NCBI GenBank assembly: GCA_002238725.1
Contig: MPMX01000003.1
Coordinates: forward strand, 1 to 64,000
DNA length: 64,000 nucleotides
Direction of reading: 5' to 3'
Source: Rhodospirillaceae bacterium bin65
GTDB taxonomy: Bacteria > Pseudomonadota > Alphaproteobacteria > Bin65
Shown: one piece after another, positions 1 through 7,458 of the stretch
Position numbering within the stretch: position 1 is the first letter of the stretch
Layout of the letters: each line of letters begins with the position of its first letter
The notes under the pieces: model-generated
The model's database searches: none
Seen by the model: only the letters and a program-made list of their open reading frames with translations
Told to the model about the DNA's origin: nothing
Made by a program: the position numbers and the translations under genes

Positions 1-680
1 ACATGGTGGTCGCGACCCTGAGCCACATGTACGTGCTCGCCGGCGACTGGGAGCTGGTCCCCGACGACTTCGACAATCCCTGCCAGGCCATCCCGACGAA
101 CCCCGAACGCAAGCGGGAGCGGTTCCTGACCGACGCGGAGTTCACCCGCCTCGGGCAGGTGCTGGACGAGGTCTCCGGCAATGGCAGCCAGATATCCGCC
201 GGGGCGGTGACGACTATCCGCCTGCTGATGCTGACGGGCTGCCGCAAGAACGAGATCATGACCCTGCCCTGGGAGAGCGTCGATCTCGGCAAGGCCGAAA
301 TGCGCATCGTCGACGGCAAGACGGGGTCGCGCACTGTCCACCTCTCGCCGTCGGCGGTGAACGTGCTCGCGGCCCTGCCGCGCGTTCCCGGCAATCCCTG
401 GGTCGTGCCGGGCACGAAGCCGGGCATGCACATGACCGACATCGACACGGCCTGGCGGACCATCCGCGCGAAGGCCGGACTCCACGACGTGCGCATCCAC
501 GACATCCGCCACTCTTTCGCCTCGCGGGCGCTCGCGCTCGGCGAGGGCCTGCCGATCATCGGCCGGCTGCTCGGCCACCGCCAGGCGGAAACGACCGCGC
601 GTTATGCGCATCTCGATCGCGACTCGGTCCGAGAATCCGCAGAGCGGGTCGCCGTCAGGATCGCCGGGTACATCCTGTAG
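1..680 (+). CDS. Tyrosine recombinase (phage/island integrase), 5'-truncated by window edge
   Basis: Site-specific DNA recombinase; about 225 C-terminal residues are visible and the gene probably starts upstream of the window. The catalytic set is present: Arg in TGCRKNEI, Lys in VDGKTGS, HxxR in HDIRHSF, the second His in LGHRQAE and the nucleophile Tyr in TTARYAHL. The first Met (position 3) need not be the real start, because the core-binding domain of this family normally precedes this part. It sits at the left edge of an accessory island, the usual place for the integrase that mobilised it. No tRNA or att repeat is visible nearby, so its integration site is unknown. Confidence 0.85.
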   Translation, partial: MVVATLSHMYVLAGDWELVPDDFDNPCQAIPTNPERKRERFLTDAEFTRLGQVLDEVSGNGSQISAGAVTTIRLLMLTGCRKNEIMTLPWESVDLGKAEMRIVDGKTGSRTVHLSPSAVNVLAALPRVPGNPWVVPGTKPGMHMTDIDTAWRTIRAKAGLHDVRIHDIRHSFASRALALGEGLPIIGRLLGHRQAETTARYAHLDRDSVRESAERVAVRIAGYIL

Positions 681-1420: not shown

Positions 1421-2899
1421 TCATCTCGCCAACACTGACGACCAGTGTGACGGGGCAGAAACCAATGAATCCGCTCCTGCCTGGTCCGCCCATCCCCTGA
1501 ATTTTGTGCATGAGCACTCCGTCCGCTGCCTTTGCGGCAAATCCGTGACATCCAAAAGAGGGGCGACAAAATTCATCTGCAATCGCTCGAAAGGAGGATC
1601 GAATCTCCCTGTCAGCCATCCTATCGCGTATCCCGCAAGCATCGATCCCACAGCTGTCGTCAGATATCCAACCGTATTTATCTGACGCTCTCGCAGCCAA
1701 TACGGATCTGGATCGTCACCCCGACTCCGCGCTTCCGCCGCCGCCGTCGAGCGGGCTGCTCGTTCCTCGTCGGACATTAGCTCCTGTGCTACCCGCCTAG
1801 AATCAATCATATTTCTGCAAAGCACGCATGGATCTGCCGCCAGAAGGCGCACAAATTGCGCAACCTGCCCTGAAATTACCCCATCCTCTCCTTCGAGCAC
1901 AACACCGCAATCCATTGCCGGCACTAGATATCGGAAGGCTAGATCGCTAAGCGCTAGTCGGCTGTGTTGCCTATCCGTACAGCCTAGGGCAATGTCAGAA
2001 GGCACAACGGCGTCGACCACTTCAGGTTGAGGAAGTCGTCCTTGCAACGCCACCACTTCAATTGACGGATCGATTTGGTGCACCAACTCCCGCGCAACTA
2101 CTACCTTTGGTGTCTTTCGTTCGGAATGGATAGGAATACTTCCGTGAATCCTGTCTAAATTCGATTGCTCGACCACATCCGGATCGACAAGTACTAGGCG
2201 ACCAACGCCAGCCCTCGCCAAAACCTCGACGGCAGCAGATCCGGTACCACCTGTACCAATAACTGCAACACAAGAGTCTCGAAGCCTAGACAGCGCTTCC
2301 TCTCCGAACGCACTAACAAATCTGGCAACACGCTCTACCTCGAAATTTGATTGTTGCTTGGATTGTCTCTTGGGCCAATTTCCTACAAAATTGCCTTCTG
2401 CCAGTGTACGGTCAAGTACTAACCAACTTCCGTTCCAGAATACGCGCCCTGAAACAAGTAGCTGATGGTCGACAACAGAGAAAATTAGACTGACATAGGG
2501 GCGATTTGGTGCAAAGTCGGCAAAGTACCGCGAGTAATAGTAATCCATGTCATCATCTATTGGACTTGGTCGTGGCGCACAGTTCTCCGGATGCGAGTGA
2601 ATAACACCAACGGACAAGGCATGATTTTCCGCAGATAATGCTACCCGTAGTGTATATTTTTCGTCAAAAGCCACATGGTCGACATTCTCGTCTAGGTCAC
2701 CAACTTCTGGCGAATCTATACCCGCAAGAGTAATGATAAGGGTGTGCCCGATGTCTCTCCACCCAAATCGAGCAAACGTCGCCCATTCCTTGTCAGGGTA
2801 TCGTCTAAATACCAGTTCCTTTAGCGCTTGGAATTCAGGTTCGGCGGCGCGAAGAACGAACTTCTTGCAATCGGACGGTTGAAGAGTCGGTATTGTCAT
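1421..2899 (-). CDS. JAB (MPN) peptidase-E1 (ThiF/UBA) activating enzyme fusion
   Basis: About 492 residues joining two activities of a ubiquitin-like pathway. The N-terminal third is a JAB/JAMM metalloprotease domain with HSHPENCAPRPSPIDDD (zinc-binding HxH, then SxxD). The rest is an E1-like adenylating domain: nucleotide loop IGTGGTGSAAVEVL, acidic VDPDVVEQSNLDR, RKTPK lysine and GCTDRQHSR. Cysteine pairs PCVLC and ECSC probably bind zinc. In such systems JAB trims the ubiquitin-like protein and E1 activates its C-terminal glycine. The ATG at 2899 overlaps the upstream E2-like stop as ATGA; an alternative ATG lies at 2914. GC is clearly lower than in the chromosome. No CD-NTase is nearby, so it is not CBASS. 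Confidence 0.85.
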   Translation of the reverse strand: MTIPTLQPSDCKKFVLRAAEPEFQALKELVFRRYPDKEWATFARFGWRDIGHTLIITLAGIDSPEVGDLDENVDHVAFDEKYTLRVALSAENHALSVGVIHSHPENCAPRPSPIDDDMDYYYSRYFADFAPNRPYVSLIFSVVDHQLLVSGRVFWNGSWLVLDRTLAEGNFVGNWPKRQSKQQSNFEVERVARFVSAFGEEALSRLRDSCVAVIGTGGTGSAAVEVLARAGVGRLVLVDPDVVEQSNLDRIHGSIPIHSERKTPKVVVARELVHQIDPSIEVVALQGRLPQPEVVDAVVPSDIALGCTDRQHSRLALSDLAFRYLVPAMDCGVVLEGEDGVISGQVAQFVRLLAADPCVLCRNMIDSRRVAQELMSDEERAARSTAAAEARSRGDDPDPYWLRERQINTVGYLTTAVGSMLAGYAIGWLTGRFDPPFERLQMNFVAPLLDVTDLPQRQRTECSCTKFRGWADQAGADSLVSAPSHWSSVLAR

Positions 2900-3309
2900 A
2901 GGCTGTCCAACCAAGAGATTAGGTGGTCAAAGTAAGTGTGGAATCCATACTGGATTTGGTCCCACGGCGGGCCGCCACCTCCGTTGTGCGGATGATAGCT
3001 AGCCAATTGCCATTGGGAGCCGTTGACTGACCGAAGTCCTTGGCTATTCTGTCCACCCTTGACCCGATCCAAGAACGGTGACCCAACAGGCAAGCCAGCC
3101 AGATCGATTGCGGCCCCAGGGTAACCCGAAGGAACTGGAACGACCACGTCGGTTTTGGACGGCAGCCCATATGGCCTCCCTCCTGTCGCAACATCTCGGT
3201 AGAGAACAAATCCTTGATTGCCCTCTATGATCAGTTCGGCGCGTTGACCGCCTTCCGAGAGGATGGAAAGTTCTCGCTCAATCCGTTCCGAGTTCACAGC
3301 CACCCTCAA
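2896..3309 (-). CDS. Prokaryotic E2-like protein (family E type), cysteine-free
   Basis: A 137-residue protein between the ubiquitin-like gene and the JAB-E1 gene. The region VPVPSGYPGAAIDLAGLPVG, then QWQLASYHPHN and FHTYFDHLISWL, resembles the Prok-E2_E group of bacterial UBC-fold proteins, recognised from motif memory. The whole protein has no cysteine, so the thioester chemistry of a normal E2 is impossible. It may be a scaffold or may use another residue. The start at 3309 overlaps the upstream gene by 32 bases and the stop overlaps the next start (ATGA), so the three genes are likely translated together. Confidence 0.75.
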   Translation of the reverse strand: MRVAVNSERIERELSILSEGGQRAELIIEGNQGFVLYRDVATGGRPYGLPSKTDVVVPVPSGYPGAAIDLAGLPVGSPFLDRVKGGQNSQGLRSVNGSQWQLASYHPHNGGGGPPWDQIQYGFHTYFDHLISWLDSL

Positions 3310-3547
3310 CCGTTTTTCGGGTCACAAGGAATTGGAACCCATCTTTGATTTCGATTTTTTGTTCGATTCCGATTTCCATGGGTTCCTCCCGGGTCTCGAG
3401 TCGGACCACAGCGTTGTCCGCGGGGACCCCGACCAGCGCAGCAATCTGTGCGCCGGTCATTTCGGGTTCAACACCATCACCTTCGTCGAATTTGCGACGG
3501 TTCACGTAGATCTCCAGTCGCTTCGGATCGTATCCTCTTTCGGCCAT
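3278..3547 (-). CDS. Ubiquitin-like protein (multi-ubiquitin family, single domain)
   Basis: An 89-residue protein with a beta-grasp pattern: LEIYVNRRKF, then MTGAQIAALVGVPADNAVV, then KIEIKDGFQFLVTRKTVEGG. The Gly-Gly at residues 82-83 is followed by six residues (CELGTD), so the conjugatable diglycine would be exposed by a protease, fitting the JAB domain encoded downstream. It is the first gene of the three-gene minus-strand operon. The ATG at 3547 has AGGAG about 8 bases upstream. The frame continues open to 3733, but that stretch overlaps the divergent promoter and regulator and is rejected. Family: Multi_ubiq-like, by motif. Confidence 0.8.
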   Translation of the reverse strand: MAERGYDPKRLEIYVNRRKFDEGDGVEPEMTGAQIAALVGVPADNAVVRLETREEPMEIGIEQKIEIKDGFQFLVTRKTVEGGCELGTD

Positions 3548-3579
3548 GTCGGTTTCTCCTTGCATCCTGCGCCGTAGGA

Positions 3580-3628
3580 CTATACATTGGGTATAGGCTA
3601 CTACGACATCGTATAGTGAATATATACG
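3580..3628. promoter_or_regulatory. Divergent operator region with two TATAC/GTATA dyads
   Basis: Between the ubiquitin-like operon and the XRE regulator lie two inverted repeats: CTATAC-N5-GTATAG at 3580-3596 and CGTATA-N7-TATACG at 3610-3628. Both use the same half-site. The second ends at the ribosome-binding site of the regulator (GGAGG at 3628-3632). This is the usual layout for an XRE repressor controlling itself and the divergent operon. Confidence 0.6.
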
Positions 3629-3639
3629 GAGGAGCATGG

Positions 3640-3984
3640 ATGTCAAGAAAAAAGGGCGAGGGTGGCACCCTACCGGAGAATCTGCGGAAATTCCGGGATC
3701 TTCGGGGCCTGACGCAGGCTCAGATGGGCGCACGGTCGGCTATCGGAGCCGCGTCGATTTCCCACTTCGAAACCGGACAGCGCACACCGACGCTGCATAC
3801 GATTGTCAAGCTCGCAGATGCTCTTGATGTCACTGTGGATGCACTGCTGGGTCGCGCGCCCGTCGAGAGCTCCGCGCATGTTGACCCCGTCTTTCTTCAA
3901 GCATCAAAGGCGGATGCGCAAACACTCGAGACGGTCCGACGTGTCGCGGAAGCGATATTGGAAGATGCAAACAAGCGCACCTAG
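3640..3984 (+). CDS. XRE-family helix-turn-helix regulator
   Basis: A 114-residue DNA-binding protein. The HTH covers roughly residues 11-68: ENLRKFRDLRGLTQAQMG, then SISHFETGQRTPTLHTIVKL and ADALDVTVDALLGR, a standard Cro/CI fold. The C-terminal ~40 residues are probably helical (dimerisation). The ATG at 3640 is preferred over the 3636 ATG, which is out of frame; GGAGGA lies 6-7 bases upstream. It is divergent from the ubiquitin-like operon and separated by paired TATAC/GTATA dyads, so it most likely represses that operon and itself. Similar small regulators often accompany defence genes. Confidence 0.85.
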   Translation: MSRKKGEGGTLPENLRKFRDLRGLTQAQMGARSAIGAASISHFETGQRTPTLHTIVKLADALDVTVDALLGRAPVESSAHVDPVFLQASKADAQTLETVRRVAEAILEDANKRT

Positions 3985-4492: not shown

Positions 4493-4720
4493 ATGCCAAG
4501 CAAGCCAACTGGCGCGGGCCACAAGCATGGCTCATCAACCAAGAACGTGACACATACCGCTAACCAACAGGACCCATCCGATCCAACAACCGAAGAGATG
4601 TCTATCGAACAAATACAAGAAATTCTCCGACAAGCTCACCAAACAGTGAAACCGATCGTAAAGCGCGAAGCATTGAATGAGCTTGTCGATGAAGACATTC
4701 TCGGTTTCAAAATGCTGTGA
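4493..4720 (+). CDS. Small hypothetical protein
   Basis: A 75-residue protein, not recognised. The N-terminal half is polar and disordered-looking (MPSKPTGAGHKHGSSTKN); the C-terminal half (MSIEQIQEILRQAHQTVKPI) is probably helical. GGAGGA lies about 8 bases before the ATG, supporting translation. It stops 16 bases before the truncated protease-like gene and shares its low GC, so the two probably formed one operon on the imported cargo. It could be a partner or regulator of the downstream protein, but this is only inferred from position. Confidence 0.55.
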   Translation: MPSKPTGAGHKHGSSTKNVTHTANQQDPSDPTTEEMSIEQIQEILRQAHQTVKPIVKREALNELVDEDILGFKML

Positions 4721-4736
4721 ACTCGGATATAGGTAA

Positions 4737-5411
4737 ATGCAGAAAATGAAACGCTTCGATTATCCAACCTACAATATTGAAGTCTTGTCTATTGATGACG
4801 GTTTTGCTGCTCTATACGCTTGTCCGCCGGGTTTTGTCGAGCATTCATGGTCCTTAACACAAGCTGAGTATTTGCAGGTCTATCTCACGCAAATTGGCTG
4901 CAAAACTATGGTCATAGAAGATCACTATATTGATCGCGTGTTTATGCGTGACAGCGAAATCTATTATGTTCGCAGCCTGCGATCATACCCTAATTTCACA
5001 AAACGCGTACATTTCTTTGACAAACAATTCGACAATACCGAATGGAAGAATATGATACAGCAAGCGGGACACGGCAAGTTACCTGAAATTCAAGATATTC
5101 TACAAGCAAGCTATCTTGGGTTTACCGTCATAAGGCCATTACCAGAATCTCCTGTTGGTAGAACCATACTGCCCGCCCGGTTTCCCCACGCCCCAGCAGA
5201 GGAAGAGTCATATTTTGGAACCATTCGCCGCCATAATGTACATTTAGCCGGCATTTCTTTATTTGTCGACGGCGTGCCCTTCCAAAGTCAGGATCAGGGT
5301 GTAAGTGCATGCGCCACTACTGCACTTTGGAGCGCGTTAGATAGCGTCGCATCCAGAGAAGAAATTACAGTGTCTTCGCCGGCGAGTATCACAGAGTCAG
5401 CCACCCGTTAC
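4737..5411 (+). pseudogene. Predicted papain/C39-like cysteine protease, 3'-truncated by mobile DNA
   Basis: About 225 residues are coherent, beginning at MQKMKRFDYPTYNIEVL. Near residues 185-200, PFQSQDQGVSACATTALW has the Q..D..V..CA..AL pattern of papain-fold cysteine proteases (oxyanion Gln plus nucleophile Cys). The segment holding the catalytic His and Asp should follow but is lost: after about 5411 composition and codon use change and the frame runs on through IS110 antisense DNA to 6548. Low GC marks it as imported cargo. The remaining frame probably makes no active enzyme. The protease family call rests on this one motif. Confidence 0.5.
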
Positions 5412-5876: not shown

Positions 5877-6643
5877 TCATGCCGGCGCCTTGAAGACAAA
5901 GCCCTCGGGGATCTCGCCCAGGGTAACGAACCGCCACAAGGCGATCAGGAGCTTGCGAGCGAGCGCCACAATCATCGTCTTTCGCACGCTGCTGCGGCCA
6001 TCGGCGGTACGTTCGCGATACCAGCGCGCAAGGGCGCTGTCCTTGTGGAAGATCAGGAAGCGCCAGGCGAGCTGGATCATCCCGGCGCGTACACGGCTAT
6101 TACCGGCCCGGGCCAATCCTTTCTCACGGCGTCGCTTGCCGCTCTCGTCTGGCGATCCGGTCAGCCCGCCGTAGCGTGCCAGTGCGCGGCGGTGAGGTAT
6201 GTCACGCGAGAAGATTTCGCCAACAAGCATGTCGGCCGTCTCCAGGCCAAGCCCGTGAATCTGAGACAGCAGTCGGACCATGCTGTGATGTTTGTCGTCC
6301 GGGTCAGCTGCCAGGCGTTCCTCGCGGGCGACCTCGATCTCCTTGATCTGCTCGTTGACGTAACGCAGACGCGCCATGTCCCGCCGCAGTTCAGCCAATG
6401 TGTTGGGCGGGATCGGCGCCCCTTCCGGCGTGCGGAGGTCCTTCAGGCGGTCTGCCGCGCGGCGCAGCTTCGGATTGAAATCCCGGATGCCAAGGCGCAC
6501 AAACGTCGACTTCAACCGGTTGACGATCCGTGTACGTTCCGAGACTAGGTTGTCCCGTTCTCGGTGCGCGCGGCGGGCGTCTTCCTCCTCAAGGGATGGG
6601 ACCGGAACCATCCGGCAGTGTTCTATCTCGCCGCGAAGCCAGC
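5877..6643 (-). pseudogene. IS110-family transposase, N-terminal part missing
   Basis: C-terminal ~255 residues of an IS110 (DEDD plus Transposase_20) recombinase. WLRGEIEHCRMVPVPSLEEE and VNRLKSTFVRLGIRDF come from the linker region; LSQIHGLGLETADMLVGEI and RYGGLTGSPDESGKRRRE belong to the serine-containing C-terminal domain. The N-terminal DEDD domain is absent: homology stops at 6643, exactly where the TGTTGTC end of the next element begins. The frame continues to 6881, but those residues are read through the neighbouring transposon and are not IS110. The element is therefore dead. Confidence 0.8.
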
Positions 6644-6769
6644 TGTTGTCTCGCAGATTATTTGACCATGGGTTTCCCGGATTATTTCGCGCGACAGGTG
6701 AGAGGGCGCAGGCTTTTGGCGGGGACCGGGGGGTGATCCGCTCGGAATAATCGAGGTTTTGGGGTGGGT

Positions 6770-6806
6770 GCCCCCCGAAGAGCTTGCAAGAAGCGCTCCG
6801 GGGGGC
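6770..6806 (+). other. Strong GC hairpin upstream of the first transposon gene
   Basis: GCCCCCCG (6770-6777) pairs with CGGGGGGC (6799-6806), and inner GAGC (6780-6783) pairs with GCTC (6795-6798) around an 11-base loop. It ends 38 bases before the first transposon gene. It could attenuate read-in transcription or block translation from outside promoters. Confidence 0.5.
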
Positions 6807-6843
6807 TTGTCTCGGTGACGGTGAAATCTCCAGAGACGCCCCA

Positions 6844-7458
6844 ATGTCGCACAAGCTGTTCCGCCATTCCATGCTTTCCAACGCCCGGGTCTGGGCTTTC
6901 CTGAAGCGGGTCGACGCGGCGGAGGCGGAGGCCTCCCGTGCAGCGGGCTGTCCGCGCTGCGGCGGAGACCTTCACAGCGCGAGCTACCTGCGCAAGCCGT
7001 ACGGCCTGTCGGCCGATCTTCGTGACGATGCCCGGCGCTTCAGCTTGTGCTGTTCGGTGTGCCGGCGCCGCGTGAAGCCGCCATCGGTGCGTTTCTTCGG
7101 GCGCCGGTTCTATGTCGGGGGGTTGTTCCTCCTGGTGAGCGCGCTGGCTCTGGCCGGCGGCGTGCGCCTGCAGACGATCGCACGCAGGTGTGGGGTTCCG
7201 GCCTCGACCCTGAAGCGCTGGCGGCGCTGGTGGCGGGAGACCTTCCCGCTGACCCGGGAGTGGCGGGCGAAGCGGGGCGCGCTGGCGCCGCCGCCCGGGG
7301 TGGCGCCGCTGCGCTGGCTGCTGCGTTCCATCCGGGGCCTCGGCTTCCGCTCGCGGCTGTTGCGCAGCCTGGTCTGGCTGATGCCGTGGACGGGTTTTTG
7401 CGCACTCGGCGCCGGGTCGGCGGCGCCCGCAGAGAGCGTTTCTGTCATGAACGGATAG
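6844..7458 (+). CDS. Zinc-ribbon/HTH transposon protein (DUF6431-like)
   Basis: About 204 residues. A zinc ribbon is visible as CPRCGG near residue 38 and CCSVCRRRVK near residue 70, followed by RFFGRRFYVGG. A likely helix-turn-helix follows at residues 100-130 (LQTIARRCGVPASTLKRWRRWW). The layout matches proteins I recall as DUF6431, found beside rve transposases. It probably binds transposon DNA. It is the first gene of the element, 49 bases before the transposase gene. The start at 6844 is chosen because the Met is followed by coherent sequence; a TTG at 6784 falls inside the GC hairpin. Confidence 0.6.
   Translation: MSHKLFRHSMLSNARVWAFLKRVDAAEAEASRAAGCPRCGGDLHSASYLRKPYGLSADLRDDARRFSLCCSVCRRRVKPPSVRFFGRRFYVGGLFLLVSALALAGGVRLQTIARRCGVPASTLKRWRRWWRETFPLTREWRAKRGALAPPPGVAPLRWLLRSIRGLGFRSRLLRSLVWLMPWTGFCALGAGSAAPAESVSVMNG

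What the first reader, a model, noticed from the sequence alone, without database searches (positions are those of the whole stretch)
1421..3984. Compact ubiquitin-like conjugation operon in a mobile island
Three overlapping minus-strand genes encode a ubiquitin-like protein with a processable Gly-Gly, an E2-like protein and a JAB protease fused to an E1. A divergent XRE regulator sits next to them. Bacterial operons of this kind (Multi_ubiq, Prok-E2_E, JAB-E1) were predicted by comparative genomics, and related systems such as BilABCD and CBASS Cap2/Cap3 act in phage defence. This variant has only three genes, no CD-NTase and no separate JAB. Its lower GC and its place between an integrase and IS remnants suggest imported cargo.
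Basis: partly seen in the sequence, partly recalled or inferred. Interest (0 to 1): 0.9.

Follow-up and report, generated by a model that had tools for sequence, protein, structure and literature searches.

The report
Divergent bacterial ubiquitin-like (Bub) conjugation operon
A broken mobile island in a bacterial genome carries a three-gene set resembling ubiquitin, its loading enzymes and its remover; it is a deep, unusual branch of the recently described 'Bub' pathway, probably works without the usual catalytic cysteines, and sits beside the remnant of an unnamed protease gene that recurs next to such operons.

Summary
The minus strand at 1421-3546 encodes a Multi_ubiq protein (89 aa, Gly-Gly plus six-residue tail), a Prok-E2_E protein (137 aa) and a JAB-ThiF fusion (492 aa), with a divergent XRE gene at 3640-3984.

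This is not a new kind of system. Iyer et al. 2006 predicted it ('row 6e'), and it is now called Bub. The best PDB matches are Citrobacter BubCD and BubB. The compact layout is common: 11 other loci show Ubl, E2 and JAB-E1 without DUF6527.

What is distinctive:
- The E1 belongs to a deep, fully supported four-member Bub clade; its Ubls end in Gly-Gly plus a tail.
- The E2 contains no cysteine; the only invariant residue across 22 E2s is Ser104.
- The near-invariant E1 tyrosine (BubCD Y370) is missing; a Tyr-Trp pair sits in an inserted loop instead.
- The closest E1 relative (55%) has a Ubl but no detectable E2, in a sulfur/CoA gene cluster.

Beyond the given coordinates, 4493-5411 holds the remnant of an unnamed C39-like peptidase family, cut by an insertion. 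Relatives lie beside five other Bub operons, one of them in this genome.

A defence role is plausible but untested.

The parts
1421..2899 (-). JAB-E1 fusion (BubCD-like), 492 aa: N-terminal JAMM isopeptidase domain, C-terminal ThiF adenylation domain with a zinc-type cysteine set (C358, C361, C462, C464)
   Evidence: ThiF E 5.6e-36; AF2 model pLDDT 83.7, pTM 0.87; Foldseek best hit 9ea4 BubCD E 9.1e-30
2555..2599 (-). JAMM motif residues H101-x-H103 ... S112-x-x-D115
   Evidence: invariant, with E38, in 24 aligned JAB-E1 proteins
1700..1702 (-). E1 Tyr400 of the inserted 'YW' loop, candidate replacement for the near-invariant family tyrosine (BubCD Y370)
   Evidence: column comparison of the E1 crossover loop; BubCD D104A/Y370F named in the PDB title of 9eav
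2896..3309 (-). Prok-E2_E (BubB-like) protein, 137 aa, no cysteine
   Evidence: 27.2 bits; AF2 pLDDT 87.4, pTM 0.84; best PDB fold 9eae_C BubB, VIA Z 12.8
2998..3000 (-). E2 Ser104 of the SYHPHN motif, the only invariant residue of the E2 family
   Evidence: 22-sequence alignment
3278..3546 (-). Ubiquitin-like protein (BubA-like), 89 aa, single Multi_ubiq domain
   Evidence: Multi_ubiq 27.0 bits, cut-off 24.5
3298..3303 (-). Gly82-Gly83, followed by the tail CELGTD
   Evidence: sequence; V-x-GG conserved in the two clade relatives that have a Ubl
3547..3639 (.). Divergent control region: inverted repeats CTATAC-N5-GTATAG (3580-3596) and CGTATA-N7-TATACG (3610-3628); minus-strand promoter-like TTGACA-N16-TATATT (3646-3619)
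   Evidence: two repeats sharing a half-site in 0.1% of shuffles
3640..3984 (+). XRE-family regulator, 114 aa
   Evidence: HTH_3 E 9.8e-14
4493..4720 (+). Small ORF (75 aa) just upstream of the peptidase remnant; many relatives have a small ORF in this position, though not alike in sequence
4737..5411 (+). Remnant of an unnamed C39/papain-like peptidase: keeps the Cys region (SACATTALW), lacks the His and Asp part; homology stops at about 5411
   Evidence: tblastn 30-41% to L086, L089, L090, L091, L092, L144; blastp to L075; profile E 2.5e-86
5877..6881 (-). IS110-family transposase next to the break
   Evidence: Transposase_20 E 2e-12
3..680 (+). Tyrosine integrase, cut by the contig end; second integrase fragment at 690-905
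   Evidence: Phage_integrase E 3.6e-20 and 4.9e-8

Best explanation
The operon is a compact, divergent Bub (6e) pathway that attaches a small ubiquitin-like protein to targets and removes it. Proposed order: the JAB domain trims the tail after Gly83 (inferred); the ThiF domain adenylates Gly83 with ATP (catalytic residues present, activity inferred); the Ubl is passed to the partner E2 through an oxygen nucleophile rather than a cysteine (inferred), with E2 Ser104 as the likely acceptor and E1 Tyr400 possibly assisting; the E2 then gives the Ubl to an unknown target; the JAB domain can remove it again. The divergent XRE protein probably represses the operon through paired TATAC operators and releases it under stress. 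The likeliest biological role is stress or phage defence carried as mobile cargo; that last step is inference.
For: Profiles for all three proteins. Fold matches to BubCD and BubB above all other PDB entries. Profile match of the E2 family to Citrobacter BubB, E 1.1e-22, which has WSRH where the window has SYHPH. Full JAMM motif and adenylation residues invariant in 24 E1s. No conserved cysteine in the E2; in the E1 the conserved cysteines are the zinc-type set and, in 19 of 24, one at 'CTD'; Ser104 is the only invariant E2 residue. Ubl, E2 and E1 recur side by side in most loci examined, in Pseudomonadota, Acidobacteriota and Cyanobacteriota. Divergent HTH genes sit beside other such operons, and 219 of 544 Bub operons have CapW or CapH+CapP regulators (PMC13373217). 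Operator-like repeats. Mobile context in the relative L007 too (integrase and ImmA/IrrE-type protease nearby).
Against: No activity, conjugate or protection was measured. Iyer et al. 2006 judged this E2 family catalytically inactive, so the E2 could be a scaffold. The closest E1 relative sits in a locus with no detectable E2. PMC13373217 says Bub has not been shown to protect against phage. The neighbouring peptidase gene is broken, so if it is the effector this copy may be defunct.
Confidence: 0.72

Rival explanations
1. The Ubl and JAB-E1 are a sulfur-carrier pair (thiocarboxylate at Gly-Gly, as ThiS/MoaD with ThiF/MoeB), and the E2-like protein is a non-catalytic accessory.
For: The closest E1 relative (55% identity; Terrarubrum plasmid, L008) has Ubl and JAB-E1 but no E2 detectable on the 435-kb plasmid, 33 bases downstream of a CaiB-like CoA transferase and beside SufE, acyl-CoA dehydrogenase, MoaD and MoeB genes. 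Its Ubl also ends in Gly-Gly plus a tail. Siderophore clusters with Ubl, E1, JAB and CaiB are known (Iyer row 4a).
Against: The window has an adjacent E2 whose single invariant residue is kept, and no rhodanese, SufE or metabolic gene was recognised among the flanking genes scanned. The E1 groups with Bub E1s, not with MoeB.
Confidence: 0.15
2. The module conjugates the Ubl, but to regulate a host process or the mobile element rather than to stop phages. (This rival concerns the purpose only and shares the chemistry of the best explanation.)
For: Bub regulators respond to DNA damage and the authors leave a global stress role open (PMC13373217). Residence in a mobile island fits element maintenance as well as defence.
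Against: Related operons and the linked peptidase family occur near restriction-modification, caspase-like, TrlF and prophage genes.
Confidence: 0.35
3. The locus is a decaying remnant with no function: open frames persist but the effector and integrase are broken.
For: Peptidase truncated at about 5411, integrase fragments, assembly ends at window position 1.
Against: The three frames, the catalytic motifs, the ATGA overlap, the ribosome site and the operator-like repeats are intact.
Confidence: 0.2

Closest known systems
Bub (bacterial ubiquitination-like) pathway, Citrobacter BubA, BubB and BubCD; PDB 9ea4, 9ea5, 9ea8, 9eae, 9eav; Ye et al. 2026 and Gong et al. 2025 (known here only through citations in PMC13373217 and PMC12687455)
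   Same: Ubl, E2 without a conserved cysteine, JAB fused to the N-terminus of the E1; best fold matches for both modelled proteins
   Different: Window Ubl is a single domain ending in Gly-Gly plus a tail; no DUF6527; near-invariant E1 tyrosine absent with a Tyr-Trp loop inserted; E1 only about 19% identical in the structural alignment
Iyer, Burroughs and Aravind 2006 operon type 6e (PMC1779556)
   Same: Multi-ubiquitin-like protein, Cys-less E2/RWD-like protein, JAB-E1 fusion, mobile and patchy
   Different: Most of theirs have 2-3 Ubl domains and often a metal-binding further gene (probably DUF6527); a solo Ubl was noted in one species
BilABCD
   Same: Ubl, E2, JAB and E1 encoded together
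   Different: Separate BilC and BilD; BilB has a catalytic Cys138 in a CEHH motif (PMC11354881); anti-phage action shown for Bil (recalled), not for Bub
Type II CBASS Cap2/Cap3
   Same: Ubiquitin-like conjugation chemistry with E1, E2 and JAB folds
   Different: CBASS fuses E2 to E1 and conjugates a CD-NTase; here the JAB is fused to the E1 and a separate Ubl is encoded
ThiS-ThiF and MoaD-MoeB; PDTC siderophore type
   Same: Gly-Gly Ubl and ThiF adenylation domain
   Different: No E2, no fused JAB; the adenylated Ubl receives sulfur

Membership tests
Bub / operon type 6e | Multi_ubiq Ubl next to E2 and E1 | tested here: met
Bub / operon type 6e | E2-fold protein lacking the catalytic cysteine | tested here: met
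   no Cys in 137 aa; fold Z 12.8 to BubB
Bub / operon type 6e | JAB domain fused N-terminally to the E1 | tested here: met
Bub / operon type 6e | E1 groups with Bub E1s rather than MoeB/ThiF | tested here: met
   a 100/100 branch separates all Bub E1s from two MoeB outgroups; the position inside is deep and partly unresolved
Bub / operon type 6e (trait not known to be defining) | E1 tyrosine equivalent to BubCD Y370 | tested here: not met
   the aligned position is not Tyr; Tyr400 lies in an adjacent insertion. One other member, L065, also lacks it, so it is not a requirement
Bub / operon type 6e (trait not defining) | DUF6527 gene | tested here: not met
   absent; also absent from the fetched stretch of 15 of 34 other loci with an E1
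Bub / operon type 6e | conjugation activity | not testable with these tools
   needs biochemistry
BilABCD | E2 with catalytic Cys (CEHH), and separate JAB and E1 genes | tested here: not met
   no Cys in the E2; JAB and E1 fused
Type II CBASS | E2-E1 fusion (Cap2) | tested here: not met
   separate E2; PADLOC E1-E2 models match mainly the ThiF part
Type II CBASS | adjacent CD-NTase | tested here: inconclusive
   none among the flanking genes scanned up to about 10 kb; the contig ends on the other side
ThiF/MoeB sulfur carrier system | no E2; sulfur donor or cofactor partner genes nearby | tested here: not met
   E2 present; no sulfur or cofactor gene recognised among the flanking ORFs scanned

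The most novel reading that the evidence does not exclude
The window belongs to a Gly-Gly branch of Bub at the boundary between sulfur carriers and conjugation systems: one relative uses the same kind of Ubl and JAB-E1 without an E2 in a biosynthetic cluster, and the E1 Tyr-Trp loop is present in the two members that keep an E2 and absent in the one that lacks it. In addition, an unnamed C39-like peptidase family, often preceded by a small ORF, is a previously unrecognised partner or effector of some Bub operons.
Probability: 0.3. Interest if true: 0.72.

Novelty: new variant of a known kind. Interest (0 to 1): 0.5.

Why it matters
Bub pathways have solved structures but, as far as I could check, no proven target, effector or anti-phage role. 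This branch offers a minimal Ubl, E2 and JAB-E1 set for testing Cys-free ubiquitin-like transfer, a natural E2-less comparison (Terrarubrum), and a candidate linked protease that recurs beside Bub operons in unrelated bacteria. Together these make the open questions of mechanism and effector directly testable.

Tried and rejected
Relatives in IMG/VR: none for the E1 clade; two for the peptidase. GenBank phages: only ThiF-domain hits for the E1 and none for the peptidase. Window E2 by tblastn in plasmids: no match. The genome-contig scan gave one E1 relative. Sampling 385 genomes of the window genome's class and 396 of the L007 phylum gave no further intact clade member, only the E1 fragment L058. 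Bil and CBASS membership rejected on E2 and E1 features. A unique three-gene layout rejected. The Ye 2026 and Gong 2025 papers are not held, so I could not check what they report on Bub transfer chemistry; I recall, unverified, that they describe oxyester rather than thioester intermediates, so the Ser route may already be known for Bub. One search found no paper linking such a peptidase to these operons. Exclusive pairing of peptidase and Bub rejected: most peptidase loci examined have no Bub genes in the fetched flanks.

Full report
OBSERVATION. The three minus-strand frames are real genes. The Ubl starts at ATG 3546 behind AAGGAG; its end overlaps the E2 start; the E2 stop and E1 start share ATGA at 2896-2899. 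Pfam finds Multi_ubiq, Prok-E2_E and ThiF above their cut-offs and Prok-JAB below it. The JAB call rests on the complete JAMM motif (E38, H101, H103, S112, D115), invariant in 24 family members, and on the fold match over nearly the whole protein. G+C is 53% against 68% for the bulk of the window. The window begins at a contig end, so nothing is known to its left.

FAMILY. Iyer et al. 2006 (PMC1779556) described operon type 6e: polyUbl or, in one species, a solo Ubl; an E2/RWD-like protein lacking the cysteine and thought inactive; a JAB-E1 fusion; and sometimes a metal-binding protein. PMC13373217 reports 544 Bub operons, many next to DNA-damage-responsive regulators, and says that protection against phage has not been shown. 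In the PDB the E1 profile matches Citrobacter BubCD (E 6.4e-90) and the E2 profile matches Citrobacter BubB (E 1.1e-22). AlphaFold models of the window E2 (pLDDT 87.4, pTM 0.84) and E1 (83.7, 0.87) have BubB (Z 12.8, next best 9.1) and BubCD (E 9.1e-30) as their best matches. I conclude membership in Bub/6e.

COMPARATIVE ANATOMY. I collected 35 loci with an E1 hit, the window included. Ubl, E2 and E1 genes sit together in most. DUF6527 was found in 19 and not in the fetched stretch of the other 16; 12 of those 16, the window among them, have Ubl, E2 and E1, so the compact layout is common (some contigs end close by, so absence is not always certain). The E2 has one invariant column in 22 sequences, Ser104 of the window, usually followed two residues later by His. 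There is no conserved E2 cysteine, and in the E1 no cysteine is conserved apart from the zinc-type set and a 'CTD' cysteine present in 19 of 24. From this I infer an oxygen-based transfer. A PDB title names a BubCD D104A/Y370F mutant in complex with BubB and BubA. Counting along the printed alignment, with an offset of two that also fits D104, Y370 falls on a tyrosine present in nearly all family E1s; outside the window clade the one clear exception is L065. The window clade lacks it and has Tyr-Trp (Tyr400 in the window) in an inserted stretch. What that tyrosine does is not known to me.

THE WINDOW CLADE. A maximum-likelihood tree of 34 sequences (32 Bub-type E1s and two MoeB outgroups) gives a 100/100 clade of window, L008 (Terrarubrum plasmid), L007 (Acidobacteriaceae MAG) and L058 (an E1 fragment), deep among Bub E1s. 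The three members with a Ubl end in V-x-G-G plus 2-10 residues. L007 repeats the same three genes with an integrase and an ImmA/IrrE-type protease gene nearby. L008 has Ubl and JAB-E1 but no E2 match on its plasmid (the tool warns that an empty answer without a positive control is weak; its chromosome was not searched), 33 bases after a CaiB-like CoA transferase and next to SufE, acyl-CoA dehydrogenase, MoaD and MoeB genes. Its E1 lacks the Tyr-Trp insertion, whereas window and L007, which keep an E2, have it; L058 has it too, but its operon is truncated. This is a correlation in a handful of sequences, seen after the fact, not a test.

UBL ENDS. In loci with DUF6527 and a readable stand-alone Ubl end, a Gly lies at or near the C-terminus; operons without it have Gly-Gly or Arg-Gly, or fall in two groups whose Ubls end exactly in DDNS or TPVS with no Gly. 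These groupings were read by eye from the alignment and tree labels.

CONTROL REGION. The 93-base divergent gap holds CTATAC-N5-GTATAG and CGTATA-N7-TATACG; two such repeats sharing a half-site arise in 0.1% of dinucleotide shuffles. I fixed that statistic after seeing the repeats, so it is descriptive. A promoter-like TTGACA-N16-TATATT on the minus strand overlaps the second repeat.

THE NEIGHBOUR. The ORF at 4737-5411 is the first 225 residues of an unnamed protein family with conserved Cys, His and HDD motifs and a marginal Peptidase_C39_2 match (24.7 bits against a cut-off of 24.0 in one member). Homology stops there and the rest is not in the window; an IS110-type gene lies about 470 bases on. 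Relatives lie next to the second Bub operon of this same genome (L075), and next to Bub in L086, the Mesorhizobium AR07 plasmid (L090), a Pseudomonas aeruginosa plasmid (L091) and a second locus of the L007 genome (L144). Selection matters here: L090, L091 and L144 were found by searching with the peptidase, whereas in the survey reached through other routes only 3 of 35 loci with an E1 carry it, two of them in this genome. In 349 sampled genomes of the window genome's phylum 21 have the family, and none of the loci fetched from them, apart from this genome's, shows Bub in the flanks. Other neighbours are type I restriction, a methyltransferase, TniQ, caspase-like, TrlF and prophage terminase genes. 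The family is absent from PADLOC 2023 and NCBIfam. I therefore call it a recurrent but non-exclusive neighbour of Bub, of likely defence-island character.

VERDICT. A new variant of a known kind: Bub membership is well supported, the Cys-free mechanism is inferred from conservation (and may already be described for Bub in a paper I could not read), and the defence role is untested.

Noticed in passing
window 4493-5411; L075 9227-10747; L086 580-2121; L090 4644-6482; L091 4607-7010; L144 2381-3676: Unnamed C39-like peptidase family, often preceded by a small 50-90 aa ORF, beside some Bub operons and in other defence-like neighbourhoods; not in PADLOC 2023 or NCBIfam.
   Followed up: partly
G000:C15, locus L075 6271-8497: A second, divergent Bub operon in the same genome, with its own nearby peptidase gene of the same family.
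   Followed up: partly
L075, L077, L083, L086, L090, L144: Ubls of one DUF6527-less Bub clade end exactly in DDNS with no Gly at the C-terminus; L069, L071 and L072 end in TPVS. Unusual for proteins expected to be adenylated at a terminal Gly.
   Followed up: partly
L008 4264-14532: Terrarubrum plasmid cluster: radical SAM, CaiB-like CoA transferase, Ubl, JAB-E1, SufE, acyl-CoA dehydrogenase, MoeB, MoaD; possibly a sulfur-containing natural product pathway using an E2-less Bub-like pair.
   Followed up: partly
L058 3139-3879: E1 fragment of the window clade with its N-terminal half missing, next to a Peptidase_M78 (ImmA/IrrE) gene.
   Followed up: no
L125 5890-7995: Viral contig (IMG/VR) with a peptidase-family gene near terminase genes, a position that looks like prophage cargo.
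   Followed up: no
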